Made by a program: the position numbers and the translations under genes | Shown here: positions 2,400 to 29,888 of the stretch, piece by piece | How positions within the stretch are numbered: the stretch's first letter is position 1 | Layout of the letters: each line of letters begins with the position of its first letter | Assembly (NCBI RefSeq): GCF_026151205.1 | Contig: NC_087077.1 | Coordinates: 6,990,983-7,054,982 of the forward strand | Length of the DNA stretch: 64,000 nucleotides | Direction: 5' to 3' | Source of the DNA: Bolinopsis microptera | Taxonomy: Eukaryota > Ctenophora > Tentaculata > Lobata > Bolinopsidae | The notes under the pieces: generated by a model | Told to the model about the DNA's origin: nothing | The model's input: only the letters and a program-made list of their open reading frames with translations | Database searches by the model: none

Positions 2400-3622
2400 G
2401 TATCTCCAGACAAGTGTCAGACGTTACTATGCATTGGTTGCTCTTCAAAAAGGTTAGCAAAAAGATAAAGAGTGCGACCCTGATAAACTTTTGGGAGAGA
2501 TTCATCGACGACATATTTGGAGTGTGGATGGGGACAGCGGGACAATTTACAATGTTTGTCGAATTGTTGAACAAACTGGCTAAATCAAACTGGCAGAACC
2601 ATATAGAATCAAGGTTATCTTTTTAGACCTTACCTTGAGCTTGGACTCAGAAAATCAGATCTGGTACAAGCTATTTAGAAAGGAAACAGATGCTAGGAAC
2701 TACTTGAGATCAGATACATATGTAGTTTCCAACCCCACCATGTGTAGAGGACCTGGGCGAACTAAAGGAGGATCTTGCCAGATGCGGACACAACAACAAC
2801 GGTGACAAACTAGAAGAAATCGAGCCGAAAGCAATACAGAGGTCTATTGAGAACCCAGGAAATCCAACCAGAGACACTGAGGATAAGACACAACAGAGCC
2901 TCGTATTTTCCGTACAACACTCTTGATAACATTAGTCTTACAAAGTTGGTTAAGAACTTAATCTGGTCATTAAGCTACTAGGTTAATGTTATGTGGGGAT
3001 GTACGGATAGTATTTGCCACTAGGAAACACCCTTCAATCGGTAATACACTAGAAAAGAATCGACAACTGGGACAACTGGAAACCCTTGATGTAGGACAAT
3101 TACAGAGGTGTAATGGACCTAGCTGCAAAATTTGCCCCGTCCTCTTTGACAAGGACTCAAAAGATCATGGGGGGGGGGGGGGGGGGGCCAATGACTACCA
3201 ATAGAGACTTTTGGGGACTAATGGGGACTAAAAATCATGGGGACTAGAGGTCAACTCGTTGACGTAATTCACCATTTGTCCCCATAAGTCCCCAGAATTT
3301 TTGACAGTTATTTATGGTTTTCAAGTTAGTTTAATAACGATACGATCGAGATGTTTTGTCCAAGATAAGAGTAGGATAAATCTAAATGGGGACTAATGGA
3401 GACTTTTGGGGACTAAAAATCATCTAAATGGGGACTAATGGAGACTTTTGGGGACTAAAAATCATGGGGACTCTGGGTAAAATCGTTGACGTAATTCCCC
3501 AAGTCCCCAAAAGTAGTCATTGGCCCCCCCCCCCCCCCCCGATCATGGTCAACAACATAGAACTGGTGCTAGACGGAACTCTAAAATGCAAGGACAAGCA
3601 TGTTATCTACCTTATTGGTCAT
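2400..3622 (+). pseudogene. Penelope-like retroelement remnant (RT and linker), frameshifted and interrupted
   Basis: Decayed Penelope-like element read in several + frames. At 2490-2620 the RT catalytic motif appears as FWERFIDDIFGVW followed by a helix-like stretch. After a one-base shift near 2620 the frame continues as IFLDLTLSLDSE and YKLFRKETDARNYL, the usual PLE block after the YxDD motif. Several stops follow. A third block at 2980-3165 has VFATRKHPS and CNGPSCKICPV, the cysteine-rich linker before the GIY-YIG endonuclease. Beyond an inserted MITE the frame resumes at 3545 with LKCKDKHVIYLIG, the start of GIY-YIG, and is then cut by a second small insertion at 3621. The upstream RT and the endonuclease body are missing. 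Clearly non-functional. Confidence 0.82.
3171..3540. mobile_element. 370-bp MITE with G17/C17 caps and 8-bp target duplication
   Basis: Inserted in the Penelope-like remnant. The 8-bp direct repeat GATCATGG flanks it (3163-3170 and 3541-3548). The left end is a run of 17 G followed by CCAATGACTAC; the right end is GTAGTCATTGG followed by 17 C. This gives perfect 28-bp terminal inverted repeats. Inside are repeated blocks of GACTTTTGGGGACTAA, including a 42-bp direct duplication (3380-3421 and 3422-3463), and two copies of TCGTTGACGTAATTC. It has no coding capacity. The 8-bp duplication would suit a hAT-like enzyme, but the ends lack the usual CAG-type hAT terminus. Confidence 0.88.
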
Positions 3623-3732
3623 AATTATCACGGACATTACTTTCACACTGAAGACCTCAGCGTGAATTATTATGTCCGTGAAAATAATGTCTGTGGTATT
3701 AAGGTCCGTGAATAATAAAGTCCGATAATTAT
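3621..3732. mobile_element. Small (112-bp) inverted-repeat insertion
   Basis: The Penelope-like reading frame stops matching at the word ATAATTATCACGGAC (3621-3635). The segment closes with GTCCGATAATTAT (3720-3732), an imperfect inverted copy with a two-base indel. Inside, GTCCGTGAA recurs at about 3674 and 3704. No clear target duplication is visible, so the boundaries are approximate. Confidence 0.5.
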
Positions 3733-4261
3733 TTCCATTAATTTTAGTGTGCGTCCCACATAGGCGTAGATATGTCTGTAGCCGATTACTATATTAGCTA
3801 ATTAGTATACTAGGACAAATATAATCACTCCTCAGTCACATTCTAGAGTTCAGAAAAAGAGTAAAAAACTGAATATTATAAACTGGAGTTATTTCAATTT
3901 TAAAGAAGACATTTTGGCTAGTATCCCGAACCGAGATATTATATGTGCAATTTTTTTCATGGAAGCCTTTTTACTTAGTATCCACTACAGGCACGTAGCC
4001 AGGATTTTTCTTTGGGGGGCCCTTTGCGAGCGGAGCGAGCCGACCCGTTCAATCCAGCTGCACAACAAAATTTGTTGTTTTCTTGATTTTTTATGTATGG
4101 TGTAAAACAGTGTAGAGAAGTGTACGATCGAAGAATATTTCCAGATTTAAACATGTAACAATTGTTGTTTAAATGCTACCTGAAGCTGTTCAAATGAAAT
4201 TGAACTGGGAGAATCGAGAAGATTACAAGTCACAGCTACGTACAACAATCAGGGTCAGGAA
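3733..4261. repeat. Non-coding stretch with a dispersed repeat fragment (about 3988-4060)
   Basis: AT-rich sequence without a gene. At 3988-4060 it contains GGCACGTAGCCAGGATTTTT, a G-run and the palindromic GCGAGCGGAGCGAGC. Words of this kind are common in dispersed repeats of marine invertebrate genomes (from memory, not searched). Element ends could not be fixed. Confidence 0.45.
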
Positions 4262-5355
4262 TGAAAAGGGATACGTAGATAGAGTTCCTTATAATCCCTG
4301 ACTACGACAGGGAGCTGAAGGCAGATCTGGGAGGGTCTGGGCACAATATTATATTGCTATTATATTATCATCTGCACACTTATACTTTAACTTAGCTTAA
4401 ACTAATTACAACACTACAAATCCATTACATTTATTGAGGATATGAGTATGACGTAGTTATGTCGATACGTTATTCAACTATTTATTTCTATTAGAATCTG
4501 TCTTCACTAAGTCTATTTAGAGACAATCAGAAATTTGAATCATTTATCAAGACATTATACTTATACATCACAAAACCTCCGACTTGATTTACAACTTAAC
4601 TTCACAAACACTAATCATATAATACAAACTTACTCTGTCGGTTATCATACTATAATTCAAGGCAACATTAGCGTCCGTGAATTGATCTCTGCAGGAGCCC
4701 TCCCTTACTAAAACTTGTGTCTTCATCTGCCGTATTACTTGGGAATATCGCCGGTCTCAGCTTCAAACATAAAGGTATGATATTCAATAGATGCCGCTCT
4801 GCAAACTTCACCTGAAAAGGGATAAGTAGATAGAGCTCCTTATAATCCCTGACTACGACAGGGAGCTGAAGGCAGATCTGGGAGGGTCTGGGCACAATAT
4901 TATATTGCTATATTATCATCTGCACACTTATTCTTAGTTTTAAACTAATTACAACACTACAAATCCATTACATTTATTGAGGATATGAGTATGACGTAGT
5001 TATGTCGATACGTTATTCAACTATTTATTTCTATTAGAATCTGTCTTCACTAAGTCTATTTAGAGACAATCAGAAATTTGAATCATTTATCAAGACATTA
5101 TACTTATACATCACAAAACCTCCGACTTGATTTACAACTTAACTTCACAAACACTAATCATATAATACAAACTTACTCTGTCGGTTATCATACTATAATT
5201 TAAGGCAACATTAGCGTCCGTGAATTGATCTCTGCAGGAGCCCTCCCTTACTAAAACTTGTGTCTTCATCTGCCGTATTACTTGGGAATATCGCCGGTCT
5301 CAGCTTCAAACATAAAGGTATGATATTTAATAGACGCCGCTCTGCAAACGTCACC
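4262..5355. repeat. Tandem segmental duplication, two copies of about 0.55 kb
   Basis: Copy 1 (4262-4812) and copy 2 (4813-5355) align over their full length with few substitutions and two small length differences, near 4363-4395 and 4912-4935. Both start TGAAAAGGGATA and end CTCTGCAAAC-TCACC. High similarity implies a recent unequal exchange or replication-slippage event. Each copy contains the coding-like minus-strand block described at 5211-5366, so an exon may have been duplicated. Confidence 0.93.
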
Positions 5356-5366
5356 TTATCACCTAC
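5211..5366 (-). CDS. Candidate exon of an unrecognised minus-strand gene (second copy at about 4660-4813)
   Basis: On the minus strand a 3' splice-like ATCTGTTTCAG ends at 5367. The frame then reads VGDKVTFAERRLLNII, then LRPAIFPSNTADED, to a stop at 5211. A possible donor, TTTTA/GTAAGG, lies before that stop. In the upstream copy of the tandem duplication the same peptide follows TTATCCCTTTTCAG at the duplication junction, with VKFAERHLLNII in place of the first residues. A candidate donor (CACCAG/GTACTC at 6018/6017) upstream would join in phase 0 to this exon. I do not recognise the family. It may be a real multi-exon gene, a decayed one, or chance. Confidence 0.25.
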   Translation of the reverse strand, partial: VGDKVTFAERRLLNIIPLCLKLRPAIFPSNTADEDTSFSKGGLLQRSIHGR

Positions 5367-6017
5367 CTGAAACAGATTTTAAGATAAGCAACTAAATAAA
5401 GATTCGTTGAGATTCTGAGTTTCTGCCCTGACGGCTAACCAAATAAAATTTGGTTTAAGATATTTACCTTCTTTCAGATTTCTTTTTTAGACTGAACTAA
5501 ACTTTAAACGATAACCTCTGAATGATCTGAACAACTAACTTTAAGGACATCGATCCTAAGAAATGGCCGTTTTTAAAAGCATTAAAAAATTTCAAAGGGT
5601 CTACACAATGTCAATAACGCGCGGCCGGCTGGCGCTAGATATTGTAAAAGGCTTACGATTTTTTCCTTTATTCATCAGAAAGTCAATGTGGCAGACATAA
5701 AGAGCTAAAACTCTGTCAAAGCTTCTAGATCAATCTTTCGATACTGTTTAGGCGGGAACTACAGGAGGTGCTATTTTCAGGTCCGTCTAGATCTCTGATA
5801 GGAAAAGTTAGTGGATCACTGGATCCGTCCCTGAAGTGAAACAAATGTTACTATCTTGCAAATGTTAACCATTTTATTTCGATTAGAATCGAATTTAACA
5901 TACTTAAACTTGATATGATGTAATAATGAGGTACGTGTAAAAATCAAGGGTATCCCTCGAGCCAGTTCAGCTTGTGTAGTATAACAAAATAAATAGGGAA
6001 AAATAAGGGAGAGTACC
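5367..6017. other. No gene seen (possible intron)
   Basis: AT-rich sequence between the two candidate minus-strand exons, consistent with an intron if they belong to one gene. A GCGCGCGGCCGGCTGGCGC patch lies at about 5615-5635. No repeats were recognised. Confidence 0.3.
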
Positions 6018-6320
6018 TGGTGCCATGCTGTGTCAACAGAAGCGCTGAGGATAAATTCAGTGAGCATTAGTTGGAAAGGATTGTCATCAGTTACTGTGTG
6101 AGTTAGTGTTGTGGTGGACGAAAGGATAAGCCGCTGATCAGGGATATAGGCCCCTCCTCACGAACTCTCTGCTGTGTTGGCGCAACGAGTGAGACTTTGG
6201 GGTGGTCAAAAGATGTGATGGTCCCGTCAAGTCTTGGCGAAACTCAACATAGGTCAGATAGGTAGAAAACAATGCCATTGGAAAACTCTATCCAATGCAA
6301 TAGTCACATTATAGTCATTT
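6018..6320 (-). other. Candidate coding exon or gene relic, frame broken
   Basis: On the minus strand a strong acceptor-like GTTTTTTTCTTCTTCTAG ends at 6321 and a donor-like CAG/GTACTC lies at 6018/6017. Between them two overlapping open blocks look coding-like but lie in different frames: one has LDGTITSFDHPKVSLVAP, the other YIPDQRLILSSTTTLTHTV continuing to SVDTAWHQ at the donor. One base difference near 6160 would merge them, so this is either a frameshifted relic or an assembly error. An 84-codon open frame lies just upstream (6353-6607) with FSSDKARFAMIQRLF. No family is recognised. Confidence 0.22.
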
Positions 6321-6673
6321 CTAGAAGAAGAAAAAAACCTGGTTAATGTTGTTTAATGTGAGAGAATAAGATAAAAGAGTCGACCAATTTTTGTCAGTGT
6401 AAATATTGTCAAACAGCGGGCTCCAAAATCGTCTAGGGGGAAAGAGCCCTGAATATCAGCTATCTGCCTTAGTACCTTGGCTCTAAAGTCTAAATTATGC
6501 AGCGATGACGACATAAAAAGTCGCTGTATCATGGCAAATCTTGCTTTGTCAGAACTAAAAGAAGGTTTAGGAGCAAAGTAAATATCAGACTTAAGATATG
6601 AAAGCACAGAAAGACTGAGTCAAATGTACAATTGTAGCTGCTGTCAGCTATTCTGCATCAAATAAAATATTAA

Positions 6674-7224
6674 GGGGCCATCTACTTAGGACGTCCAGCA
6701 AAAAGGGAGGGGGAGGTGGTTTTGGAATTTCGGACAAATCCGGACAGTGATAGGGAGTGGTTTCTGAAAATCCGGACGTCCGGAAATTTTGGCAGAATTA
6801 ACGAAAAAGTCGCATTTATTTCAACTCTTTGACACTAATTACTCAGTAAGTTTAGATCCCTGTATTTTGAACGAGAAGTCGTTTCCCAGAGCAGCTCATG
6901 AGAGCTGAGACACAACTCGCATATTCTGCTACTGCCTTAAAACTTATTCCATTGGATGGCTACCTACTTAAGTACCTTAATGTAACTGTGCTAAACTTGT
7001 TCGACACTAAATGTATTATTGTCTATTCTAAGTGACTACACATTTTATTAACAATGAATTTGAGTTGTATTGGTTTTATTTGTACTCTTTAAAGTAGCTG
7101 GAAATCCGGACGTCCGGGGGAGGGGGTTTGAAAATTCGGACACACCCGGACAGGGGGAGGGGGTGCTCCCCGAGGGTGGTCTGAAAATCTGCAATTTTGA
7201 CGGACGTCCCAAGTAGATGGCCCC
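6674..7224. mobile_element. 551-bp PIF/Harbinger-like MITE
   Basis: Terminal inverted repeats of 23 bp: GGGGCCATCTACTTAGGACG at 6674 faces its near-perfect inverse ending in AAGTAGATGGCCCC at 7224 (one mismatch over 23). The element is flanked by TAA on both sides (6671-6673 and 7225-7227), a 3-bp target duplication of the type favoured by PIF/Harbinger transposases. Subterminal palindromes CCGGACGTCCGG occur near both ends (6772-6783, 7108-7119), together with CGGACA words in direct and inverted form. No transposase is coded, so it is non-autonomous. Confidence 0.87.
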
Positions 7225-7227
7225 TAA

Positions 7228-7560
7228 AGTCTAAACAAAAGTTCTCAAAACGTACACAACGAGAGAGTGTCGACCTACATGTCAATGAAACAGACTGTTT
7301 CACTGTTTGAGACAACACGTGTGTTTGCGCGCAATTCTGGAATAATCCGAGAGATGAACTGTAGCGAGTGTAACTTTAGTGTGCAGATGAGTGTGTACTT
7401 CGATGTATACTATTTCTGCACGTACAGGATCCTTTGTAAGGGGTCATTCACATATTTAGTTATCACTCACTTTGCTAACCAATACAGCAATACTGGGGTA
7501 GGTTCACTGATAGTGTTTCTCAGAGATATAGATGGCTGTAAATTATGCTAATAAATATAT
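7228..7560. other. No gene seen
   Basis: A 94-codon open frame (7267-7551, +) is present but shows no family motif and no neighbouring splice signal worth trusting. No repeats were recognised. Confidence 0.35.
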
Positions 7561-7567
7561 AAAAATA

Positions 7568-7845
7568 AATATGGTCAAATGTGAAATGTTAAACAATGAG
7601 ATGATTTAAGAGAAGCAAATATTAGTGGACTGAAATTATAATCTGATAAAGTGCAGCTGTGAACTCAAATGTATAAAACAAACTCACAATTCGGATCGAA
7701 CAGTTTAAAATGAAACACAATAAGACAGAGTAATTGGTAAAATGTTAAACAATAAGCTGTTTTAAGACAAGAAAATATTAGTCGACTGAAATTATGATCT
7801 GATAAAGTGCAATGTGAACTCAAATGTATAAAACAACAGATCGAA
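7568..7845. repeat. Two-copy tandem repeat of about 165 bp
   Basis: The block at about 7575-7700 (TGTTAAACAAT, TGATTTAAGAGAAG, ATATTAGTGGACTGAAATTA, TGATAAAGTGCA, GTGAACTCAAATGTATAAAA, GATCGAACAG) is repeated in the same order at about 7740-7845 with substitutions and a shorter right part. It directly precedes the 230-bp satellite. Confidence 0.75.
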
Positions 7846-7877
7846 CAGTATACAATAGTACATTTAACAAATGTACT

Positions 7878-9020
7878 ATTGCAAATGACAAAAGTGTAAT
7901 AAGGTAACTGGTAACAAGTCTGCTGGTTATTCAAAATTTAACATTAAAATATGTCCCGGCCCTTTGAATCATCCACCGAATGATCAACTGAATGATTGCA
8001 ACAGACAAAGAAACAAGCAAAATTTGTTAAATGGAGTGCATGATCAAAGAAGGTATATTAGCTCCCTACAAAAATCTAATCCAATGAGAAAATAAATCTA
8101 AAGTCCAATTGCAAATGACAAAAGTGTGGTAAGGTAACTGCAGGTAACAAGTCTGCTGGTTATTGAGAATTTAACATTAAAATATGTCCCGGCCCTTTGA
8201 ATCATCCGCCGAATGATCAACTGAATGATTGAAACAAACAAAGGAACAAGCAAAATTTGTTAAATGGAGTGCATGATCAAAGAAGGTATATTAGCTCCCT
8301 ACAAAAATCTAATCCAATGAAAAAATAAATCCAAAGTCCAATTGCAAATGACAAAAGTGTAGCAAGGTAACTGCAGGTAACAAGTCTGCTGGTTATTGAG
8401 AATTTAACATTAAAATATGTCCCGGCCCTTTGAATCATCCGCCGAATGATCAACCGAATGATTGCAACAGACAAAGAAACAAGCAAAATTTGTTAAATGG
8501 AGTGCATGATCAAAGAAGGTATATTAGCTCCCTACAAAAATCTAATCCAATGAGAAAATAAATCTAAAGTCCAATTGCAAATGACAAAAGTGTAGCAAGG
8601 TAACTGGTAACAAGTCTGCTGGTTATTCAAAATTTAACATTAAAATATGTCCCGGCCCTTTGAATCATCCGCCGAATGATCAACTGAATGATTGCAACAA
8701 ACAAAGGAACAAGCAAAATTTGTTAAATGGAGTGCATGATCAAAGAAGGTATATTAGCTCCCTACAAAAATCTAATCCAATGAGAAAATAAATCTAAAGT
8801 CCAATTGCAAATGACAAAAGTGTAGCAAGGTAACTGGTAACAAGTCTGCTGGTTATTGAGAATTTAACATTAAAATATGTCCCGGCCCTTTGAATCATCC
8901 GCCGAATGATCAACTGAATGATTGCAACAAACAAAGGAACAAGCAAAATTTGTTAAATGGAGTGCATGATCAAAGAAGGTATATTAGCTCTCTACAAAAA
9001 TCAAATCCAATGAGAAAATA
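7878..9020. repeat. Satellite-like array, 230-233 bp units, about five copies
   Basis: The word ATGTCCCGGCCCTTTGAATC recurs at 7951, 8184, 8417, 8647 and 8877, giving unit lengths of 233, 233, 230 and 230 bp. The array begins near 7878 (TTGCAAATGACAAAAGTGT) and ends near 9020 (TCCAATGAGAAAATA). Units differ by few substitutions. The 3-bp difference is CTGCAGGTAACAAG against CTGGTAACAAG. The conserved words GAATGATCAACTGAATGATT and GTGCATGATCAAAGAAGG make it easy to recognise elsewhere. Confidence 0.95.
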
Positions 9021-9060
9021 TTGTTTTCCGATATTACAATCACAATCCACGGACATGACT

Positions 9061-9357
9061 AAAAATGACTGACACGTCCCGCGCGGCATCAGAAATATGG
9101 GAGGAAATCTGGCACCACGATTTGTGGTGCCAGTTTGTGGCCATGGATAGAGCCCTCTTTGCCGCCTCCGGCGGTCGCGCGCTACTGCAAGCGAGAGGGC
9201 TCTGGTTAGAGCAAAAGGGAGGCCTAGGCTTTCAGAAATTGCACTACAAAGGGGAACCCTCGAGTCCAAAATCGTATAGGGGTAGGTGCAGACTTCGAAA
9301 ACCGAAAAAATATTTTCGGCTCATAATGATCAGGGTTGCATGAGCATGAAACATGAA
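9061..9357. repeat. Hairpin-rich dispersed repeat
   Basis: GC-richer than its surroundings. It has a perfect 10-bp stem CTGGCACCAC/GTGGTGCCAG with a 5-nt loop (9109-9133) and a second perfect 10-bp stem AGAGCCCTCT/AGAGGGCTCT (9149-9158 with 9194-9203) enclosing GCCGCCTCCGGCGG. The right end (9281-9357) is shared with 605-676. It abuts the end of the 230-bp satellite. Could be a foldback element or a copy of a structured RNA. No coding motif. Confidence 0.6.
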
Positions 9358-9439
9358 TTGACCAGTGATTAGTTGCTGATGTGATTCATAGATTGATACA
9401 TTTCACATGAAAACTGTGTACATCTTAACTCTAAATTTT

Positions 9440-9565
9440 GAACATGATCTTTAAAATTCTCCGTTCGATTCGTGGATCACATTAGGGACGAGAACTTTTG
9501 CTAATCGGGATGGATCTCGTATCAAGGGACGTGAGACTTGCGTGTCGGAGGCATTGAGGACATTA
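9440..9565 (-). repeat. LINE 3'-tail module shared with 36490-36607
   Basis: Downstream of the LINE stop codon. On the minus strand it reads TCTCACGTCCCTTGATACGA, TTAGCAAAAGTTCTCGTCCC and ATGTGATCCACGAATCGA, ending in GATCATGTTC. The + strand at 36490-36607 carries the same words in the same order with scattered substitutions. So this is a 3' untranslated tail used by more than one element. Confidence 0.7.
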
Positions 9566-9600
9566 GTATCTCATTATATCAACATGCCTGCCTATCCTGC

Positions 9601-10375
9601 TTAGGTCGATCCAGATGAACTCTGGAACGAGTTTCGCGGCAGTGCTTTCCTCCATTTATCTCTAGCACTTATGAGCAAACGTAACTTATCAGGATCCAAT
9701 CCAGTATCTTGTTGTAGGATGTCCGGAAAGGTCTCATGAGGTCGTTCTCGATACTAATGGCCATTATACGATGGTTTCCAGAAAAGGAGTTGCTGAGCAG
9801 ATTGGACATTGGTCCTGTGTTAACAGGTAAAGATTTCGTTCAAAACGAAGTCTACGTCTTTTTACGGTATCTGTCACCGGTGGAATATTTCCGTAAAGAA
9901 CGGATTTAGGTGTGTGTGATTTCCACCATATGCCAAAGACCCTTTGTAGCATTCTTGTATAGACACTGTCTAGTGCTCTAGTGTCAGCCTTCTTAAGAGT
10001 TCACGTTTCTGTGCCATACAGGAGAACAGGTGCTACGCAGCTGCAGTGGCGCACTGTTGCCTATTGGCGCCCCCCTGAAAAAGTGCCCCCTCTGTTGGCG
10101 CCCCCTCCCTTTTTGGCGCACCTCCTTAAAACTGGACAAATTATATGATTTTAGAGGATACGCCAGTAAAATCTCTAAAAAATCGTGTTTCTAGAGCAAA
10201 ACGAGCAGTTTTAGTACTGTAGTTAAGTTTTTCCAAATTGTCCCACATTCAAGTGACGATTTGGCGCCCCCCTAAGATGGCAGCCCCCCACACAGTAGGA
10301 TCGGTAGGGCCCTTCAATACGCCACTGCTGGCGCGGTTCTAAAAATCTTGGTCTTGATCTTCCTAGATTGCGTCT
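9601..10375 (-). pseudogene. LINE reverse-transcriptase C-terminal remnant (RTE/jockey-like), interrupted
   Basis: On the minus strand the frame gives KIKTKIFRT, then after an inserted element VAPVLLYGTET with a TGA at the usual Trp codon, then TLKKADTRALDSVYTRML, FGIWWKSHTPKSVLYG, VKRRRLRF, and, after a frameshift, DILQQDTGLDPDKL and ARDKWRKALPR to a stop at 9601-9603. The order (YGxETW, LDxxYTRML, LYGxxPP, RRLRF, a Lys-Trp-Arg block) is the C-terminal tail of LINE ORF2 proteins of RTE/jockey-like clades. Catalytic RT motifs are not present. Stops, frameshifts and the insertion show it is dead. Clade assignment is uncertain without a search. Confidence 0.8.
10044..10327. mobile_element. 284-bp non-autonomous inverted-repeat element inside the LINE remnant
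   Basis: It splits the LINE frame between KIFRT and VAPVLLYG. Ends are CAGTGGCGCACTG and the inverse of CAGTGGCGTATTG (11 of 13 positions match). CTG stands immediately outside both ends (10041-10043 and 10328-10330), which could be a 3-bp target duplication. No 8-bp duplication as expected for hAT is visible. TTGGCGCCCCCCT occurs near both ends. No coding capacity. Superfamily unresolved. Confidence 0.7.
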
Positions 10376-10532: not shown

Positions 10533-10550
10533 ATTATTATTATTATTATA

Positions 10551-11333: not shown

Positions 11334-13055
11334 TTATATGTCTAAGACCATCCTGAGAATCCTGGCTGATCCAAGCAGAGCTGTCTTCTGGAGATTAGAG
11401 ATGCTCAGATTGCAGTGGACTGCGTCGAGGTGTTTACGAAAGTTTATGGTGATAGTTCCTAATGCGCCTATCACCACAGGGACGATTGTGACCTTTCGTA
11501 AATTCCAGTTCTTCTTAATTTCTCTTTTCAGGTCTTGATATTTCAGAATCTTTTCTTGTTCTCTATCCAAGATCCGGGTATCTCCTGGGACTGCAACGTC
11601 AATGATGGTTGCTGCGTTGGTTACCTTGTCTACCAGGAGGAGATCCGGTCTACAGTGTTCGATAACGTGGTCCGACTGGACATGGAAGTCCCACAATATC
11701 TTGACTTGTCCGTTCTCCAGCACCTTCTCTGCCCGGTGTTCGTACCACCTTTTACTGCGTGGGAAGCCGTATTCCTTGCACAGACTCCAGTGCAATGCGG
11801 CAGCTACTTTGTCATGCCGACACTTATATTCTGTCTGTGAAAGTTTTGGGCACCCATTCAGTATGTGGTCTATTGTCTCGTAATGATTTCTGCAGAGTCT
11901 GCAGAGGGGAGAAGAGCCAGGTGTTTTGTCAATCCTGTGCTTCACGTAATTAGTCCTAAGTGCTTGGTCTTGGGCTGCTATCAACAATCCTTCTGTCTCC
12001 TTCTTCAAATCTTGTTGGGTGAGCCAGTTCCAAGAGGTTAACGGGTCTGCTGTACCCATCATCTGCCTTGGGAACTGTCCGTGCATCACTTTAGCAGTCC
12101 ATTTCTCCTTGCGGATTTCCTCGCGTTGTGTTCGGTCAATATCTTTCTCTATCTCTTCACCCAAGAGTATCTTGTCTTTGACAAAGTAGTCCTTCAGAGC
12201 AATCAGTTCTGGGTCTCTACTTCTCACCACATAAGTAGTGAGTGCATTCTCCTCTCTCTTAACGACTTCCTCTATACTATGTAGCCCACGGCCACCCAGT
12301 TGACGGCTGACGTATAACCGATCAACATCTCCTTGGGGGTGGTGAGCTCCATGTATCCTCATCAGTTTCCGGGTCTTGACATCTAAGGCTTTGGTCTCCC
12401 CAGCATTCCATGAGAGAATTCCAGCTCCATATCTTATCACAGGTACAGCCCAGGTGTTAATCGCTTGTATACTATTCCTGCCATGAAGCTGGGATTTCAA
12501 AACCTTTTTAACTCTTCTGATATAATCTTTTGTAACCAGTGCTTTCATCTCTTTGTGTAGTATATCATTAGCTTCTAGTATTCCGAGATACTTATAGCCG
12601 TCGTCCTCCAACTCATGGATCTGTTCACCTGTGGGTAGGGAGATGCCTTCAAAAACGGCTCTTGCTCCCTTCTTCACCTTCACCACGGCACATTTCTCTA
12701 GCCCAAATTCCATTTTTATGTCACTGCTGAACTCTGCTGTGGTATTAACCAGTGTGTGCATTTCGTCTTCACTCTCGGCATACAACTTGAGGTCGTCCAT
12801 ATATAGCCTATGCGACACTTTCGGTTGACCTCCTCTCTCCAGAGAGTATCCTATGTCATGCTTATTCAAAAGAATGGACAGGGGTATAAGACTAATGATA
12901 AAGTGGATAGGTGAGACTGAGTCTCCTTGGAATAGACCTCTATTAATTTTAATTCTCCCAAGGGAAACTTTACCAAGCATCAGGTTAACATACGATTGTT
13001 TGAAGGAGGCTTCAAACAGGTCTATGATGCATGAAGAGATGCCACACATGGTCAA
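11334..13055 (-). CDS. R2/R4-type (Dong-like) LINE polyprotein, N-terminally truncated: RT and restriction-like endonuclease
   Basis: Open frame of 573 codons without a stop. It begins inside the RT domain: GLFQGDSVSP (residues 40-49) is the conserved block before the catalytic YMDD (85-88), followed by FGLEKC (117-122), YKYLGI (154-159) and a thumb-like region near 203-212. The C-terminus holds a C385-x2-C388-x8-H397-x4-C402 zinc knuckle, then RHD (413-415) and the PD..D core of a restriction-like endonuclease (RPDLLLVDK 469-477, IDVAVPGD 485-492). This arrangement is diagnostic of the site-specific R2/R4/NeSL group rather than AP-endonuclease LINEs. The RT catalytic motifs upstream of GLFQGD and any N-terminal zinc fingers are missing, so this is a 5'-truncated copy. 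The intact frame suggests recent insertion. Confidence 0.94.
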   Translation of the reverse strand: MTMCGISSCIIDLFEASFKQSYVNLMLGKVSLGRIKINRGLFQGDSVSPIHFIISLIPLSILLNKHDIGYSLERGGQPKVSHRLYMDDLKLYAESEDEMHTLVNTTAEFSSDIKMEFGLEKCAVVKVKKGARAVFEGISLPTGEQIHELEDDGYKYLGILEANDILHKEMKALVTKDYIRRVKKVLKSQLHGRNSIQAINTWAVPVIRYGAGILSWNAGETKALDVKTRKLMRIHGAHHPQGDVDRLYVSRQLGGRGLHSIEEVVKREENALTTYVVRSRDPELIALKDYFVKDKILLGEEIEKDIDRTQREEIRKEKWTAKVMHGQFPRQMMGTADPLTSWNWLTQQDLKKETEGLLIAAQDQALRTNYVKHRIDKTPGSSPLCRLCRNHYETIDHILNGCPKLSQTEYKCRHDKVAAALHWSLCKEYGFPRSKRWYEHRAEKVLENGQVKILWDFHVQSDHVIEHCRPDLLLVDKVTNAATIIDVAVPGDTRILDREQEKILKYQDLKREIKKNWNLRKVTIVPVVIGALGTITINFRKHLDAVHCNLSISNLQKTALLGSARILRMVLDI

Positions 13056-13091
13056 ACATGGTCAAACAATTATTATTATTATTATTATTAT

Positions 13092-13722: not shown

Positions 13723-14954
13723 AATGTGTTTAGAAAAGGGCTGGCTTTCCGTGATGATGATATCATAGCTTTTCTCCGAGAGAGATACTTGGAGGAATTC
13801 AGCAAAGAGGAGAAGATTTTGAGCTTTGAGCACGTTGAGCGGGGGGAATGCAACGTCAATTAATGTCAGTATTCCATAAAAACCCCAAACTGACATTGAC
13901 ATTAATTGACATTAATTGACATTAATTGACATTAATTGACATTAATTGACATTAATTGACATTAATTGACATTAATTGACATTAATTGACATTAATTGAC
14001 ATTAATTGACATTAATTGACATTAATTGACATTAATTGACATTACTTGACATTAATTGACATTAATTGACATTAATTGACATTAATTGACATTAATATGT
14101 CTTGAAATTTGAGATTATCATTATTCGATAAATATTCAAGATATTCACGTCTATGTAAGTTAGACCGGTTCAAAAAAACAAAATGTCCTTGAATAATTAT
14201 GAGTATGTTCTTATCTGTTGATCCTTAGGTTCAAAGACCACCAAAAAAAATTTCAGCTTCCAACTCTTCCATCTTCGGTCCCCACCGGCCACGCCCATAT
14301 TTTATTGGTTTCTTATACAGGTAAAATATCTAGAATCGGCTTCTTTAGTATGAAGGAGTAATGTTAGCTGTTTAAGATTCGTTATTCAAATATAAATGTC
14401 ATGAAGGCATTTCGTTTAATGTGGGTTTTAAGTTCTGATGATGTTGAGAACCACGCCCTTGGATGGCCACGCCCATTTAAGAAAATTAAATTTAGGGAAA
14501 CCGTATTATTTTAGTTTTATTGTTTAATGATCTGAATTTTTTCACATTTCACATTTCCATATGTGATAGTAGTGAATAAATTAATGATATAAACGTTCTA
14601 AAGTGCTAAAAATATGGTAGAACTACATAATCTCTGGTCGAAAAATATCGTGTCAATTAATGTCAGTATTCCAAAATTTTGCAAAACTGACATTGACATT
14701 AATTGACATTAATTGACATTAATTGACATTAATTGACATTAATTGACGTTGCATTCCCCCCCGTTGAGCAGGAGGGAGAGGAATCACTAGTAACTTATAT
14801 CCAGCAGTGTTGCAATCATGGTGAATTATCTTTCTCTGGTTTTAGGGAGAACTCGATCATTGAGTTGTTTGGAACTTTATTGCAGGACTCAGAGATCTAC
14901 TGTTATTGCTACAAAGTGGATGCTTCATCAATCAGAAGCAGATCCCTGTTCTGA
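13723..14954 (+). pseudogene. Readable frame split by a G-capped element, unknown product
   Basis: The left part (13723-13840) reads RKGLAFRDDDIIAFLRERYL and KEEKILSFEHVE up to the element. The right part (14770-14954) reads EGEESLVTYIQQCCNHGELS, FRENSIIELFGTLLQDSE and a Cys/Tyr-rich end before a stop. Omitting the element and one copy of the 8-bp duplication leaves the two parts in the same frame, about 100 codons in total. A different frame (14818-15144) continues with LKRAEWESEMFTFKKEL, so the original coding sequence may have been longer and frameshifted. The family is not recognised. It may be an exon or an old transposon gene. Confidence 0.35.
13841..14761. mobile_element. 921-bp G6/C6-capped element with 8-bp target duplication and internal 10-bp arrays
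   Basis: Flanked by CGTTGAGC at 13833-13840 and 14762-14769, a perfect 8-bp target duplication. Terminal inverted repeats are perfect for 28 bp, beginning GGGGGGAATGCAACGTCAAT. Just inside each end is an array of the 10-bp unit ATTAATTGAC: about 19 copies at 13901-14096 (one variant, ATTACTTGAC) and about 5 copies at 14698-14747. Before each array stands the same lead-in, GTCAATTAATGTCAGTATTC then ACTGACATTGACATTAATTG, which can itself fold back. The middle (14097-14648) is AT-rich and non-coding. Non-autonomous; transposase source unknown. Confidence 0.92.
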
Positions 14955-22765: not shown

Positions 22766-22817
22766 ATCATAAGATAATATCTTATGATATGTATATCATA
22801 AGATATTATCTTATGAT
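22766..22817. repeat. AT-rich palindrome cluster
   Basis: ATCATAAGAT-AAT-ATCTTATGAT (22766-22788) and ATCATAAGAT-ATT-ATCTTATGAT (22795-22817) are perfect palindromes in tandem. A third palindrome is centred between them on ATATGTATAT. The segment could extrude a cruciform. No gene nearby. Confidence 0.8.
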
Positions 22818-24299
22818 ATGTATTTAAATTATTCATCATTCTGTCCTCTACAAATGATGGTTGCCCCTCTCTTGCTCTCATGTCCTCAGTAAAATATGCA
22901 CAAAAAGTCCGAAAGGTATGAAGATCTGGAAAACTTAATCAATCGAGTATCCAGCATGATTCGCATTCCCCTTTTTACAGATTATATGGAAATGTCATTA
23001 TGGCTTCATCGACTGAATAACCATACGGTCGATACTGAGTCCAAGAGTACAACTCTACAGACAACTTGCAGGACTTAAAAGGAAAAGTTGAATATAATTG
23101 CAATCCATATCTTTACACAATCCACACAGTATTCAGCCGTTTTTATTCTCTAAACTTAAAGACTACAAAATAACGCTATATGAAACAGTAAGACCTCTCG
23201 GAGAGTTAGAATTAACCCAAATATCAGGGACACGAATGCCTACTCCAGGATTTAAGAAACTAAACTTTCAACACTGAAAACATTCAGAGTAAGACCTCTC
23301 TTTACCGTGCCTCTCTATACCTACCGGATATCTCGATATACCGGGCCTCTTCTTCTAGTGTGATTTCAGTGCTCACATCGCATTTAGTAATGTGATTAGT
23401 ACCTTAATATTATTATCGAGCTGTATTCCATCGCTGTACGACACAATACGTGCATAATACAAATACGTGCATAATACAAATACGTGCATAATGAGAATAC
23501 TAGGAATGTTAGGAATAGCTGGAATACTAGGAATTGTGATCATGTGAACCGCTCTACAATCTACACCAGTGTAGTTATATAAACTGTGCTATTTTCCTTC
23601 CCCCCGAGGAGCCCGGTATAGAGAGGTTTAACTGTATATTATATATATTATATTATATTCAAAACAACAGTACTGAGTATCAGTAACTCACTACTGAGTC
23701 ACTACTGAGTTAACGTGTTTGAGAAAGTGAGACAATAATTCACGCTGTACTTAGGGCTACCTTTTAAAGTTTAGCGCCTTTCTATGTCTTCACATGAATG
23801 TTTTCCATGATTCACCCTAGGGTTAGCCTTGTGTGCCCCGCTTAATCGTTCTGTACGGGTCGCTTCTTCAAACGGTCCCCGTCCCGTCGAATCTATGTGC
23901 ACTAATTTTGGATTTGGGCACATTTCTAAGTTTTTTGGCCAAGCCTTAATAATTAGTGCGGTAGACTTGACTAGTGACTACTCATTCTGAACTCCGGTTT
24001 GTGACAGTCTTTTAAGTTACTTCAACTTGTTGTGTAAGTCAGAGATTAACCATTTAGTTCACCGCTCGGTCTACGACCTGGTCTAATATTAGAATATTGA
24101 TAGACAGTTTTTGGGTTTTCCAAATAGTTTCTGATTATTCTGATTTGCGACAAATGATATTGCACTGTTAGGATAAACGACGTTTCAAAGTAACAACTTC
24201 TTATTCATGCTGACAAAATTGGTAAATATGTGAGAAAACTGTCTCATAAAATTTATTAATCAAAAATGGCTAAACGACAACAAATTGTTCAAATACTCG
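22818..24299. other. No gene seen; small 17-bp triplicate
   Basis: Mostly unrecognised AT-rich sequence. The unit AATACGTGCATAATACA is present in three tandem copies at 23445-23495, followed by repeated GGAAT-CTAGGAAT words to 23540. Short, unremarkable open frames only. Confidence 0.45.
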
Positions 24300-24627
24300 A
24301 CTAAAATTAGAATCAAAATCTATATATATACACCACTACTCGATCTGCTATTCAATAAACTTAAAACATCCACTAAGTCTAAACAGCAAGTACGTGATTG
24401 TGATCGTGTGATGGAATGACATGTACAGTGATAACAGATGATAAGATGTAAGTGATAACAGATGATAAGGTAAAAGATACAATACATGTGAGATGGTGTA
24501 TACACAATGTGAGTGAAATTATAGTGAGTGGTTACTGATTGTGAGCGAGATGTGAAAAAACATTAAAAATTACTACTGCTAGAAAACTGAAACTGTATGC
24601 AATAAAAAGGGAATGAAACTAAAATAT
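24300..24627 (-). other. Possible 3' untranslated tail of the Penelope-like element
   Basis: Lies directly downstream of the PLE stop on the minus strand. It contains a doubled GTGATAACAGATGATAAG (about 24427 and 24451) and GTGAGTG/GTGAGCG words. The element's 3' boundary was not identifiable. Confidence 0.3.
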
Positions 24628-26105
24628 CTAAAATTCTTCAGTACTAGCTATGATAAAACGTTTAATAGTATCCAGTTCTTCTCTCTTGTTAATTGTAGGG
24701 TTCAGATTAATAATAAACATCGCTTCGAAAATCTTTCTTCTGACAGTATTGGGCTCAATTCTTAAAATATCTACTTCTAAACTGGGATTTAACCCCTTAT
24801 GACAGCTCGAATAATGTATGGCAAAAGCTTGACTAACATTAGAAGGGGTAGCAGGGTAGGTAGCGTAACGTAAGTGTTCTCCTACACGAGCATGTACTTT
24901 CCTACTGGTTTCTCCAACGTACAGCTGGTCACATAATTTACACTTAATCTTATATACAACATTCTTCACTTCACAATCTTTATTACAAACTATCAAAGGA
25001 CAAATTTTACATGAATTAATACTGCACACACGTTTATCATACGGTCTGTTACTACATAAAATATTTCTCAATTTCGAAGTAGGTTTAAAGTTTACTTTAA
25101 TAGGTAAATTGTTCTGCTTTACATAATTTCTAATCTTATTGCTAGTACTGTCCGAAATAAAATCTAAATTAAGAACTGTCCTGGAATCATCCTCAACACT
25201 CTGACGCCTGTTAGAATTACTACTGTTACAATAACGTCTTGGGTTCTGGTACCCGTTTTTCTGTAATAGATCATCAAGGAGTCTGAGAGAGTGCTCCTTT
25301 TCCGCTGGGCCAGATGAGATACGGCAAGCCTCGCTATATAGGTTCTTCACTGTATTAATCTTAACAGACTCAGGATGACAAGAGTTGTTGTGCAGGGTAA
25401 TATCCTTTTGTTGCGGCTTGCGGTACAATCTGCTGGTTAATTTACCGTTTGGCTCGATCCGGACCTCAGTGTTCAGGAAGGGGATAAAATCGTCCTGTTG
25501 TTCTGGAAAGTCGACCTCCCACTTCAACTTTTTGTCCGGATCTTGGTCTGCAATCTGTTGAACCAGAGCAAGGGCTTCTTCTTTCGTCTCTGCAGTACTG
25601 GCAGCATCATCTATGTAGCGTTTGTAGAAGTTCGATAAGTATACCGATAGGTAGTGTCGATCGGTGTAGATAGAGTTCTTCTCGAACTTGTACACTCTAA
25701 TGATGGCACAGAAGGGCCCTGGCCTCAAACCCATGAACAGACCATCCTGCTGTAGCCAGAGAGTCCTGTTAAAAACAAAGAAAGAGTTGGTAAGGATGTG
25801 TAGTAGGATCTCATGAATGTCTGTCAGGCTGAGTCCCATCAGGTCCAAACTGTCTCGGTGCTCTGTAGCTAGCTCAATGACATCGTCTATACAGCCCTGT
25901 ACGTTTATGTTAGTGTATAAAGCTGAAATATCCGCGGCAAAGAACTTTCTCCTGGCAAGCTGTTCCTGAGAGATCTGGCGGAGCATCTCTATGTGCTGGA
26001 TTAAATTACTCAGGTGACTAGGCACCTCATTAAGGAGAGGTTTAAGAATGGTCGTCACTAGCCAACTGAGTCTCTCTGTAGGTGAGTCCACGCAGCTGAT
26101 TAGAA
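24628..26105 (-). CDS. Penelope-like element polyprotein, 5'-truncated: RT and GIY-YIG endonuclease
   Basis: Continuous open frame; residue numbers count from the GTG codon at 26091, which is not a real start. RT motifs run in order: DISALYTNI (54-62, catalytic Asp), GLFMGLRPGP (117-126), YIDD (159-162) and FIPFLNTEV (202-210). A cysteine-rich linker follows (C356, C361, C364) and then the GIY-YIG domain: VVYKIKCKLCDQLYVGET (378-395), R402 with EH (405-406), and a C-terminal Glu in IFEAMF (456). This RT plus GIY-YIG layout defines endonuclease-bearing Penelope-like elements, which prime reverse transcription at a nicked chromosomal end. The frame is open upstream to SCVDSPTERLSW near 26100, where similarity stops; the finger motifs and N-terminus are missing. 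All visible catalytic residues are intact, so insertion was probably recent. Confidence 0.94.
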
Positions 26106-29060
26106 TATTGATTTATTTACTATTGACCGTCAAGTCTGAAGGAAATAGTAATTAAGCTTGCTCCATTTTTAACCTTTTGTTACCTTGGCTGTAATTCCTT
26201 TCATTAATTCTTCACTCCTTCCATCGTTAACCGATAGCTCTTGTAACTGACAACAATGTAGGCCAAATTAAAACTGATAAAATCAATCTCTCCCTTTCTC
26301 TCTCTTTTTCTTACAACAAATCAAGTCCGGCGGCCACGAGTTGTTGGCTGAGCTCTTGTTAAATGTTATTTGGCATATTTACACCGTAACTGACACGTTT
26401 TGTAACATCTCTTTTGACCGATCGGTAGCAAATTTTTAAACCTTCTTCCGTCTCTTTAAAGGATGGGATATTTCATTTACTAATTAATTAGCGGATTGAA
26501 AATTCACATTCTGTTATTATTTTCTCCCTGACATCCCGACAACATGCAGATCATTATGTGTATTATCATTACCCCTCTTTTTCCTCACTTTACTCCTCCA
26601 CTTTACTCCTCTCTTGCTTCTCACTACTACCCATTTGCCATCCTCCTGTCAATCTGTTCCCTTAAACAAGGATAATCACCAGAACATGTGACATGACTGA
26701 TCACCCATTTGCCTGTCTGGCTGCTCTCTACGTCACCCATTCTTGAGATCTGCTGCACTGTGTGGCATGCTGAACTGAGTTCTACTGCCGTTGTAACTTC
26801 TTGGTTGTTTTATTGTTTAATATATGATTGTGGTGGAGGTTGTACTTTGCTAGGAAATAACTAATCTAATAATTTGTGGCTCATATTTCCAATCAAAGTC
26901 TTAAATTAAGTTAATTTCTGGATTTAAATGAGCTTGCTAGAGTTATTATAGAGGATCAGAGAAAACGTTCTTTAGAATAAGATTATTTAATCATACATCA
27001 TGTATTTTTATAATTGCTGCTCTTTACACTAATTAAAATGAACGGATCTCTTTGTTCTGCTACACTCTAATAAATTAAGTCATTTGCCAATGTAATTATA
27101 TATTCTGAAATGCGATTCCTTTAATTAACAAGATCCTTTCCTTTTATCTGTGACTCAGAGGGGATAATATCATTACAGGTCAATATCATTACTATTTGGG
27201 GTCATACCTACTTTTGTTAGAGCTTGGTGGCTGGATTGATAAGCTAGGTTTTTATTATCCAATCTTTTGCTGTTTTCAATTATCTTAAGCTAGCGTGATG
27301 TAAATATCTAATCAAAAATTGTGACCAACCGTTGGAGAATAATATTTACTATTTTAGATTTAAATAATATTCCATATTTTTCGAAACCCCTCACCATCTT
27401 ACTATACAATTTCTCTTTCCGGTACAAGCTGCAGAGTTCCCCGAGTTGACCTCTATAATCTATTTGCCTATGACAATATCGCACTTAACTCGCACTTAGC
27501 AAGAAATTTGACTATGAAAAGTATGTGGCAGCTTTCGGCAATTTGGCTATCGAAAAGGTTGTTATAACACCAAGAATTCTTGGTCAAAGTGCTGATAGGC
27601 ATTTCCACGGGTCGAAGTTTACAATTTGGGAATATAATGCCGAGTCAGAGAGTCCTAGTGTGTCGGACAGTGCGACGGTTCCCACCTAGAGCACACTTCC
27701 CTCCCTCATTACTCACACTTTCATCGGGGTGGCTCCACGCTGCAACTCGTGCTGCAGGTAGGATCTATGCAACTTCTCCTTCCATGCAACTTTTAGCTAC
27801 GCGCAGTGACGTTTGTCACACCAGGAAATTCGTACAACAACCTAACCTTCTGGGTGATGTTGACAGATGGATCTGACTTGGTCGTGTCACAGTTGTTATA
27901 ACAGTGTAAAACTACTGGTTCCTCTGCCTCCACCCCGGCTCTCTGGCTTTATGGTTACCCTCACCAGTCACCACCACCTGGGTAGCTGTTTCAGGGTTAC
28001 TACCTGTGTGGTTTCAACATGACGTTCTGTTCACAGTCTCGTGAGATTTTAGTGTGTGAGTCTCTAATGTTTCTAAAAGAGGTAACGGGGGCGACCAGTT
28101 TAAAATGTAACTAGATTATCATGCCCCGTTGTAACTTCTAGACTAGCATTTGTCAAACTACTCATTTATTCAATTCCTTTCGAGCTTTTGGAGGGTGTAT
28201 GAGCGGCGACATGCCCTGTTCGCCTTACTCCTTTACTCTCTAGAGTTTTCTTTACTGAAGATGAGTACCTAATTGTGCGAAATTGTTCAAAATTCCTCTC
28301 GCGTCTACATAAAGACATAAATTTTTTGAAATCAAAGAGCAGTTTGTGCATTTTAAGGTTTTCTTCTTCCTTTGCTTCATACTGTTTAATATTTCCTGTT
28401 CTTGTTATTTTCTTTTCAACACATAATCTCCCGGGTATTCCACAGAACAAAACTTAAGCTGATGTAATATTATATTTCTATTATATAAAGTCGCTGTTCG
28501 TGGGTGATCTAAAAGACGCTATGATATAAAAGTAAGTTTTCTCCACTTCCTTTAGTTCACACTTTTACTTGCCCAGTTTTCTTTCTTTTCGACAAATTGA
28601 AAGTTTCCTGATATTACCCGGAAAACTTAAGTTTACTAACACTATTTTTTACGTTATAGAAGTATAACACTTTAGAAGGCACTACGATATTCATATTTTA
28701 TAACCCTACTAGGAAGGCGTGAGCCATTTAAATACTGAAACACTTTCCGGTTATTTAAATGTCAAACTTAAGTAACCGTCCAATCGTGGCCATTCTTACG
28801 CTGTTTAACAAAATCCGTCTAAAATATGATACCATTTGAAATATCAAAATAGTCTACATTTTATTCAGTTTTAATACTTGCATTTTCAACACTACTTGAG
28901 CTATGCAATCTGGGCGACAAGCTTGAAAAGTTAAAATTGACTGAAGGGCGTTCCCCCTCAGTATAGCAACACCTCGCTATATTTATTCAGGGTACTTTAA
29001 AATCATTTTATTTATTATAGAATGCATTTTGAATAAAATAAATTTTTCGAGAAAAAGTTG
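26106..29060. other. Long non-coding stretch, no gene seen
   Basis: AT-rich with pyrimidine-rich patches (about 26280-26315, 26565-26620). Open frames at 27580-27876 (+) and 28166-28450 (-) have no recognised motif. No repeats or element ends were identified. It may be intergenic or intronic. Confidence 0.4.
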
Positions 29061-29069
29061 CGTTTAAAT

Positions 29070-29879
29070 CGGGGGGGGGGGGGGGGGGGGGGGGGGGGGA
29101 GGGGGGGTGCAGGTACTTTTTTGATGGAACATATATGCTGACTTTTCGAAATTTCTGAAAATAACCACCCACCCACCTCCTTCACGAATGGAATAACAAA
29201 AAAGTACCACGGTACTTTTCGAAATTTTCCCGAATGACCCCCCACCCCCTCCTTTATTTTTCAAAAAATTCCTGTTCATCAGCAAAAGTCCACGGCTTAT
29301 CATGCTCCTTCTACAAACTGCGTTATGTTGTGCTTAGTGTGCCCACAATACCACTGGAAGTACAACATGGCGCAGCACTTTTCCACCAATCATGGTGACC
29401 ACGAGCTCCCAGAGGACTATGCCCTGGAAAAGGCAGAGGAGGAGTGGGTAAAAAAAACTAAAATTTTAGATTTTATATGTATTTTGTTATGTTGACTATT
29501 TACTATTATGAATTATTTTAGATTTTGTATATTGACACGAATTTTTCAATTTATTCTTCAGCAGGATTCTATGTTGATTTTTTGAAATTATGCATCTATA
29601 TTAGAGGACAAAAAAAGTTGAAGCAAATTATCTCATAGGTAAATCCTGTGTATCATTTATTTTTGATAATTCACCATAGCATAAGTTGGTTGCAAATTCT
29701 AACATTTTGGTAATGAAAAAGTACCATGTACTTTTATAATCATGTTTTGGGGTACCCCTTCTTTTTTTTGGGACAAAAAAAGTACCATTATATACTTTTC
29801 GAAAATTTCAAAAAACACCCACCCACCCCTCGGGTACTTTTAGGGTTATGTTCCATCAAAAAAGTACCTGCTCCCCCCA
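29070..29879. mobile_element. About 810-bp G-capped element with 8-9-bp target duplication, carries a zinc-finger fragment
   Basis: CGTTTAAAT flanks both sides (29061-29069 and 29880-29888), a 9-bp duplication, or 8 bp if the C is not counted. The left end is a run of about 29 G, one A, seven G and TGCAGGTACTTTTTTGATGG; the right end inverts it as AAAAAAGTACCTGC-TCCCCCC. The inverted match continues through GAACATA. Subterminal repeats include CTTTTCGAAATTT and AAAGTACCA words in both halves. The interior encodes a C2H2 finger fragment (see 29296-29488). No transposase domain is visible, so it is probably non-autonomous with captured or residual coding sequence. Confidence 0.85.
29296..29488 (+). 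pseudogene. C2H2 zinc-finger fragment inside the G-capped element
   Basis: The + frame reads CLVCPQYHWKYNMAQHFSTNH, a C-x2-C-x11-H-x4-H zinc-finger spacing, then GDHELPEDYALEKAEEEW, after which a possible donor GTAAAA and an A-rich tract appear; the frame closes with TGA after LLC near 29495. Fingers with a YHWKYN-like core followed by an acidic helix remind me of zinc-finger modules in transposon-related proteins of cnidarians (memory only). It may be residual transposase N-terminus or a captured host exon. Confidence 0.5.
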
Positions 29880-29888
29880 CGTTTAAAT

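What the first reader, a model, noticed from the sequence alone, without database searches (positions are those of the whole stretch)
3163..29888. Three different non-autonomous elements share G-homopolymer caps and roughly 8-bp target duplications
Elements at 3171-3540 (G17/C17, duplication GATCATGG), 13841-14761 (G6/C6, duplication CGTTGAGC) and 29070-29879 (about 29 G with a further G7 / C6, duplication CGTTTAAAT) have unrelated interiors but the same layout: a terminal G run, then a unique inverted-repeat sequence, then an 8-9-bp duplication. An 8-bp duplication is usual for hAT, but hAT ends normally begin CAG/TAG. A G run of variable length at the extreme end suggests either an unusual transposase end requirement or repeated slippage or repair at the termini. 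This could be an undescribed group of TIR elements.
Basis: partly seen in the sequence, partly recalled or inferred. Interest (0 to 1): 0.72.

Follow-up and report, generated by a model that had tools for sequence, protein, structure and literature searches.

The report
G-tipped mobile elements in an animal
Several families of small "jumping" DNA elements in this animal genome, probably a comb jelly, carry a run of the letter G at their very tips; the runs are a real part of the elements, and in one family the two tips of a copy oddly trade length against each other, but the enzyme that moves them was not found.

Summary
The three elements belong to genome-wide TIR families whose ends really are G runs: six or more Gs sit outside the core in 49 of 52 exact E1 B-end cores and 134 of 141 exact E2 cores. 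Nine other places carry the joined flanks with one GATCATGG, so for the window's E1 the G runs lie inside the element and the duplication is 8 bp. TSDs: E1 27 of 33 pairs perfect 8 bp, E2 12 of 12; E3 fits 7 bp plus an outer C best (4 of 11), the window copy alone 9. A blind scan found a fourth family, E4. The run is nearly fixed at six in E2 but long and variable in E1 and E3; it differs between copies of one E1 insertion, so it changes after insertion. Unexpectedly, the two caps of an E1 copy are inversely related in length (30 pairs, rho -0.71; 7 pairs read later, rho -0.72); unexplained, and assembly error is possible. hAT is disfavoured. GG ends with 8-bp TSDs suit Merlin or MULE; neither was shown: the one transposase seen inside an E1 copy is a nested MULE with its own ends, and family searches of the genome did not complete.

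The parts
3163..3170 (.). E1 target-site duplication GATCATGG (left)
   Evidence: nine other places with a single GATCATGG between the same flanks
3171..3187 (+). E1 left cap, 17 G (two further Gs belong to the TSD)
3188..3198 (+). E1 inner TIR core CCAATGACTAC (A end)
3171..3540 (.). E1 short non-autonomous element, 370 bp, about 0.8% from the majority row of the E1 ends
3513..3523 (-). E1 inner TIR core (B end)
3524..3540 (-). E1 right cap, 17 C
3541..3548 (.). E1 target-site duplication GATCATGG (right)
13833..13840 (.). E2 TSD CGTTGAGC (left)
13841..14761 (.). E2 non-autonomous element with GGGGGGAATGCAACGTCAATTAATG ends
13895..14096 (+). E2 subterminal tandem array, about 20 copies of ATTGACATTA
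14692..14747 (+). E2 subterminal tandem array at the other end, 5.6 copies of the same 10-mer
14762..14769 (.). E2 TSD CGTTGAGC (right)
29061..29069 (.). E3 flank CGTTTAAAT: a 9-bp TSD if one base outside the G run is the element's (TTTAAAT, 29063-29069, if 7 bp as in the better other copies)
29070..29879 (.). E3 non-autonomous element: C + G29 + A + G7 on the left, C6 (+A) on the right, inner TIR TGCAGGTACTTTTTTGATGGAACATA (one base differs on the right)
29880..29888 (.). E3 flank CGTTTAAAT (right copy)

Best explanation
These are non-autonomous copies of cut-and-paste TIR DNA transposons of at least four families in one animal genome, probably a comb jelly. Their ends start with a short G run (six in E2) immediately inside an 8-bp target duplication (E1, E2), or inside an outer C and a 7-bp one (E3). 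This end type is that of Merlin-like or MULE-like transposons. In E1 and E3, and in the few E4 ends read, the run has passed the length at which slippage becomes frequent and has grown into a changeable poly-G cap (intact E1 ends 7-44). Shown: the caps lie inside the element (E1), are nearly obligatory (E1, E2), TSD length is consistent (E1, E2), E2's cap is nearly fixed, and cap length differs between copies of one E1 insertion. Inferred: transposition by a Merlin- or MULE-type transposase; slippage as the motor. Not explained: why the two caps of an E1 copy are inversely related in length.
For: Empty sites: 9 places (6 exact, 3 with one mismatch; reversed control 0) carry the joined flanks with one GATCATGG. 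Caps: six or more G outside 49 of 52 exact E1 B-end cores and 134 of 141 exact E2 cores. TSDs: E1 20 of 26 pairs perfect at 8 bp (3 of the 20 are copies of one insertion), mismatched-pair null 0.9%, plus 7 of 7 later pairs by reading; E2 12 of 12, null 0. Change after insertion: five copies of one insertion have caps 17/17, 13/25, 11/21, 23/23 (right core lost) and 22/right end lost. E2 nearly fixed at 6 versus E1 median 16.5 and E3 median 16. Seven of 23 E1 copies are under 1% from the majority row, and some of these already have long, unequal caps (25/12, 32/7). Merlin: GG ends, 8-9-bp TSDs, remnants or ORFs in three ctenophores (PMC8101967, passages). MULE: 8-9-bp TSDs in all 14 Aedes families and subterminal tandem repeats in 10 of 12 with long TIRs (PMC5225508, passages), as in E2.
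Against: No transposase was found for any family. Of 20 long copies fetched (11 E1, 7 E2, 2 E3) I scanned frames of six with Pfam: LINE or Copia reverse transcriptases in five and one MULE, which is nested with its own TIRs and 9-bp TSD; others were seen to hold minisatellites. Apart from the G run the TIRs are not significantly alike (best of 25 comparisons p 0.01). E3's 7-bp TSD fits neither superfamily well. The copies of one E1 insertion sit in a repeat that may itself be copied through RNA, so their cap differences need not all be replication slippage. Symmetric slippage does not predict the inverse relation of the caps.
Confidence: 0.6

Rival explanations
1. Sub-reading 1: MULE (Mutator) elements. 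The caps are the start of MULE TIRs and a MULE transposase of this genome moves them.
For: FLYWCH and MULE domains in L070 between E1 ends (Pfam 8.9e-7 and 2.5e-11); this MULE's ends begin GGG; 8-9-bp TSDs and subterminal tandem arrays are usual in Aedes MULEs (PMC5225508, passages).
Against: That MULE is nested: TIRs of about 560 bp of its own and its own 9-bp TSD CGGGGAAAA (read). A copy whose matched protein stretch is 100% identical over 260 aa stands at C10:265963; the DNA left of it (L089, about 185 bases before the MULE start) has no E1 end. Looking by eye through the 149 MULE matches I saw only the L070 one inside a listed E1-E4 copy; this was not a computed comparison, and the E1 and E2 lists show only the first 100 places.
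Confidence: 0.3
2. Sub-reading 2: Merlin (IS1595-like) elements, by GG termini plus 8-bp TSDs.
For: Merlin families start GG and have 8- or 9-bp TSDs; remnants or preserved ORFs in three ctenophores (PMC8101967, passages). E1 and E2 meet both features.
Against: No DDE_Tnp_IS1595 match in the frames scanned with Pfam, which are few; the genome-wide search for PF12762 did not complete. E3 has 7-bp TSDs.
Confidence: 0.35
3. hAT elements with aberrant ends.
For: 8-bp TSDs.
Against: Ends start with G, not CAG/TAG; the hAT target motif nTnnnnAn is met in 6 of 37 TSDs (both hAT features recalled).
Confidence: 0.05
4. Cap lengths, and with them the inverse relation, are an assembly artefact of long homopolymers.
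For: The genome resembles the Bolinopsis microptera assembly, made from PacBio reads with wtdbg and polished with Illumina reads (PMC10232365, passages); long homopolymers are error-prone in such data (established knowledge).
Against: Presence of caps is not at issue: 49 of 52 and 134 of 141 ends. An artefact that conserves the sum of two runs lying 2-9 kb apart (rho -0.85, n 10) is hard to name.
Confidence: 0.2

Closest known systems
Merlin superfamily (IS1595/IS1016 relatives)
   Same: 5' terminus GG; 8-9-bp TSD; known in ctenophores (PMC8101967, passages)
   Different: No transposase shown here; no poly-G caps in the passages seen; E3 has 7-bp TSDs
MULE/Phantom, Muta1 and Tm1 type elements
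   Same: 8-9-bp TSDs (Tm1 mostly 9), complex TIRs with subterminal tandem repeats (as E2), many non-autonomous derivatives (PMC5225508 and PMC3169594, passages)
   Different: Muta1 ends in a 10-bp palindromic motif and Tm1 in CGGTTAA/CCTACCC, not in G runs; the MULE met here is a separate, nested element
Microsatellite-targeting Mutator MITEs (MuTAnT in Medicago; Ac-mMITE in pineapple)
   Same: MITEs bordered by simple repeats
   Different: There the repeat is the target (TA)n (PMC8449440 abstract; PMC4486113 seen only in search listings); here the G run is inside the element, as the E1 empty sites show

Membership tests
Merlin | Termini begin 5'-GG | tested here: met
   E1, E2 and E4 ends read; E3 usually has a C outside the Gs
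Merlin | 8- or 9-bp TSD | tested here: met
   E1 27 of 33, E2 12 of 12 at 8 bp; not met for E3 (7 bp best, 4 of 11)
Merlin | DDE_Tnp_IS1595 transposase (PF12762) in an autonomous copy | not tested
   genome search did not complete; no match in the few frames scanned with Pfam
MULE | 8-11-bp TSD | tested here: met
   E1, E2; E3 not met
MULE | MULE transposase inside matching ends | tested here: inconclusive
   the only one seen is nested with its own TIRs and 9-bp TSD; PF10551 genome search unanswered
hAT | CAG/TAG-type termini (recalled) | tested here: not met
   ends read in all four families start with G runs
hAT | nTnnnnAn target preference (recalled) | tested here: not met
   6 of 37 TSDs

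The most novel reading that the evidence does not exclude
The ends may exchange Gs, by reciprocal exchange or strand switching between the synapsed inverted G runs during or after transposition, or be drawn apart by replication-fork direction, so that cap length is a state of the whole element and not of each end alone.
Probability: 0.25. Interest if true: 0.75.

Novelty: new variant of a known kind. Interest (0 to 1): 0.52.

Why it matters
If the cap lengths are genuine, these are microsatellites built into the very ends of a transposon, where a transposase has to cut exactly. Either the transposase finds the outer edge of a G run of any length from 7 to 44, and so cannot be measuring a fixed distance from the inner TIR, or the caps grow anew after each insertion. 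The near-constant total of the two caps, if it survives better reads, would be a trace of a link between the two ends that ordinary cut-and-paste models do not contain. Young copies in what is probably a sequenced comb jelly make both points testable.

Tried and rejected
First taken, then rejected: L070 as the autonomous E1. Its FLYWCH-MULE gene looked decisive, but inverted-repeat analysis and reading of the flanks showed a nested element.

E4 as the autonomous family: a peptide (L074:8180-8512) is matched in E4 copies, in five of them within open frames of 529-590 aa. In the one such frame read, L091 (574 aa), about half is a TCCTCC minisatellite read through; the remaining ~290 aa have no match above the cut-offs of Pfam, none in NCBIfam and none in the PDB sequences. 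Not called a transposase.

A shared TIR signature of the families (a TAC followed by T/A6, seen by eye) did not survive shuffling, except E3-E4 at p 0.01 in 25 comparisons.

Causes tried for the inverse cap lengths in E1: end type A or B (Wilcoxon p 0.48; p 0.24 with six later pairs), relatedness (Mantel p 0.53), age (p 0.71 for the sum, 0.35 for the difference), flank GC skew (rho -0.30, p 0.16) and TA skew (rho 0.21, p 0.33), same sign along a chromosome (20 of 41, p 0.45). Against frequent inversion of the element: the five copies of the one insertion have the A end on the same side. E3 shows no significant relation (n 11, rho -0.28, p 0.40; -0.17 without bridging); E2 cannot show one. Before I dropped 3 of 26 pairs (two overlapping duplicates near C1:19.90 Mb without TSD, one truncated at C1:21.48 Mb) and kept one without a convincing TSD (C2:4878249); Gs owned by the TSD were removed and single-base interruptions bridged by hand. 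Without these edits: n 26, rho -0.68. With one copy per insertion and perfect TSDs only: n 25, rho -0.74.

Paper searches for G-capped TIRs or comb-jelly TIR elements showed no such description in the listings; only open-licence papers are held, and Repbase and Dfam were not available. One search failed on a term.
Full report
What was checked. The three elements are present at the stated places. The window lies at C6:6990983-7054982 of a 264.65-Mb genome of 232 contigs. Contigs C1-C13 add up to 258.07 Mb, 97.5% (lengths, added by hand); the rest together is 6.6 Mb. That matches a ctenophore karyotype of 13; for Bolinopsis microptera a 13-scaffold assembly holding 97.23% of its bases and a genome of about 254 Mb are reported (PMC10232365, passages seen). 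The host is therefore inferred to be a comb jelly close to or equal to that species; no gene was used to prove it.

Genome copies. E1 (GGGGGCCAATGACTAC, up to 1 mismatch) has 191 hits, E2 (AATGCAACGTCAATTAATG, up to 2) 477, E3 (GCAGGTACTTTTTTGATGGAACAT, up to 2) 30; the reversed-pattern controls gave 1, 7 and 0. From the loci fetched I paired ends: E1 26, E2 12, E3 11 pairs. A blind scan of window and loci for G-run/C-run pairs with inner inverted repeats and a TSD found 29 places against 0, 1 and 3 in three homopolymer controls, and among them a fourth family, E4 (G32/C23, TCCAACTACAAAAA, flank CAAAAGAT), nested in an E1 copy in L074. E4 has 50 end hits (control 0), in 23 convergent pairs 3.3-10 kb apart by my count. 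For E4 only this one TSD was read (8 bp, or 7 if the C belongs to the run).

The caps belong to the elements. E1 of the window sits in a multicopy sequence that I take, by a CxxxxCxxCP motif seen by eye, for a Penelope-like element. The joined flanks with one GATCATGG occur at nine other places (six exact, three with one mismatch; control 0). These are the empty target: no G run is there, and the duplication is exactly 8 bp. At exact E1 B-end cores 49 of 52 have six or more Gs outside; at exact E2 cores 134 of 141. So the cap is a near-obligatory part of these ends, not chance microsatellite growth. The same count was not made for E3, E4 or the E1 A end.

TSDs. Up to three run bases could be credited to the TSD. 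E1: 20 of 26 pairs perfect at 8 bp and 22 of 26 with 7 or more matches, against 0.9% perfect in mismatched pairs; three of the 20 are copies of one insertion. E2: 12 of 12 against 0. Seven more E1 pairs read later all have an 8-bp TSD, three of them only after crediting run Gs to the TSD or bridging one interruption. E3: no clear 8 bp; with one outer base (usually C) given to the element, 4 of 11 pairs are perfect at 7 bp and 5 of 11 within one mismatch, against 0 of 110 mismatched pairs; the window copy alone fits 9 bp, and the others have no convincing TSD. TSDs of E1 and E2 show a weak RNYNNRNY symmetry, in part perhaps from the crediting, and no hAT motif (6 of 37).

Cap length. E2: 18 of 25 ends exactly 6. 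E1: median 16.5, 1-39 (58 ends, the two shortest being truncated ends); E3: median 16, 0-39 (30 ends; interruptions cut some runs short); the later E1 pairs reach 44. Five copies of one E1 insertion (97.3-99.1% identical to the window copy over the main aligned block; one has a second block at 93.1%) have caps 17/17, 13/25, 11/21, 23/23 (right core deleted) and 22/right end lost. So length changes after insertion, by replication slippage or, if that repeat is copied through RNA, also by reverse transcription. Seven of 23 E1 copies are under 1% from the majority row and include caps such as 25/12 and 32/7; neither sum nor difference follows divergence.

The unexpected point. Within one E1 copy the two caps are inversely related: raw, n 26, rho -0.68, p 1.4e-4. 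I noted a prediction (rho below 0) before reading new pairs. All 30 pairs after the edits told under 'tried': rho -0.71, p 2e-5, the floor of 50,000 shuffles. One copy per insertion with perfect TSD, n 25: intraclass correlation of log length -0.70, p 4e-5. It holds for ends more than 2 kb apart (n 10, rho -0.85) and nearer ones (n 20, rho -0.66), and it agrees with a model in which a copy's total is split at random with at least 7 at each end (expected rho -0.58, range -0.76 to -0.36). End type, relatedness, age, flank skew and chromosome do not explain it. E3 shows no significant relation (n 11, rho -0.28). Assembly error in long homopolymers is a live alternative, since the matching published assembly was made from PacBio reads with wtdbg and polished with Illumina reads.

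Who moves them. The seven long E2 copies fetched are the ordinary E2 body interrupted by other sequence, with a Copia or LINE reverse transcriptase in the two scanned with Pfam. Of the eleven long E1 copies, several hold minisatellites, two scanned hold LINE pieces, and L070 holds a FLYWCH-MULE gene. That gene belongs to a nested element with TIRs of about 560 bp starting GGGTATA, a 9-bp TSD CGGGGAAAA, and related copies elsewhere. One of two long E3 copies was scanned and holds a LINE. E4 copies share up to 1.5 kb at one end and a peptide without a known domain. Searches of the genome for the Merlin, MULE and hAT families did not complete. By end type and TSD, Merlin (GG ends, 8-9 bp; PMC8101967, passages) and MULE (8-9 bp, subterminal tandem arrays; PMC5225508, passages) both remain open; hAT is disfavoured. 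I file the elements under no superfamily.

Verdict. A real end structure, consistent in E1 and E2, shared by at least four TIR families, best read as Merlin- or MULE-type ends whose short G start has turned into a changeable cap in E1, E3 and probably E4. It is a new variant of a known kind, with one unexplained regularity (paired E1 caps of near-constant total) that deserves a test on better reads.

Noticed in passing
L070:583-3447 (C3:20490982-20493846), TSDs 574-582 and 3448-3456; related copies at C10:265963, C4:3110992, C3:19388445, C7:3976809: FLYWCH-MULE element with long TIRs starting GGGTATA and a 9-bp TSD; the related matches lie in open frames of 362, 441, 356 and 501 aa, so this MULE group may be recently active.
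   Followed up: partly
L091:62-931 (minus strand) and E4 copies genome-wide: A ~290-aa stretch related across E4 copies without an accepted Pfam match and without NCBIfam or PDB match; dozens of remote hits (about 40% identity), many in frames of about 113 aa.
   Followed up: partly
window 11337-13061, 24631-26112, 50369-51097 (all minus): A reverse-transcriptase frame, a second RT-like frame and a GIY-YIG-like frame, the last two below Pfam's cut-off: probably LINE- and Penelope-like remains.
   Followed up: no
L074:5348-7584, L069, L072, L073, L075, L079, L090, L091: Kilobase arrays of a TCCTCCTCAGT-type minisatellite inside long E1, E2 and E4 copies, as if these elements often pick up or grow similar arrays.
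   Followed up: no
E1 and E2 target duplications: Weak symmetric target preference RNYNNRNY, strongest in E1; crediting of run bases may contribute at positions 1 and 8.
   Followed up: no
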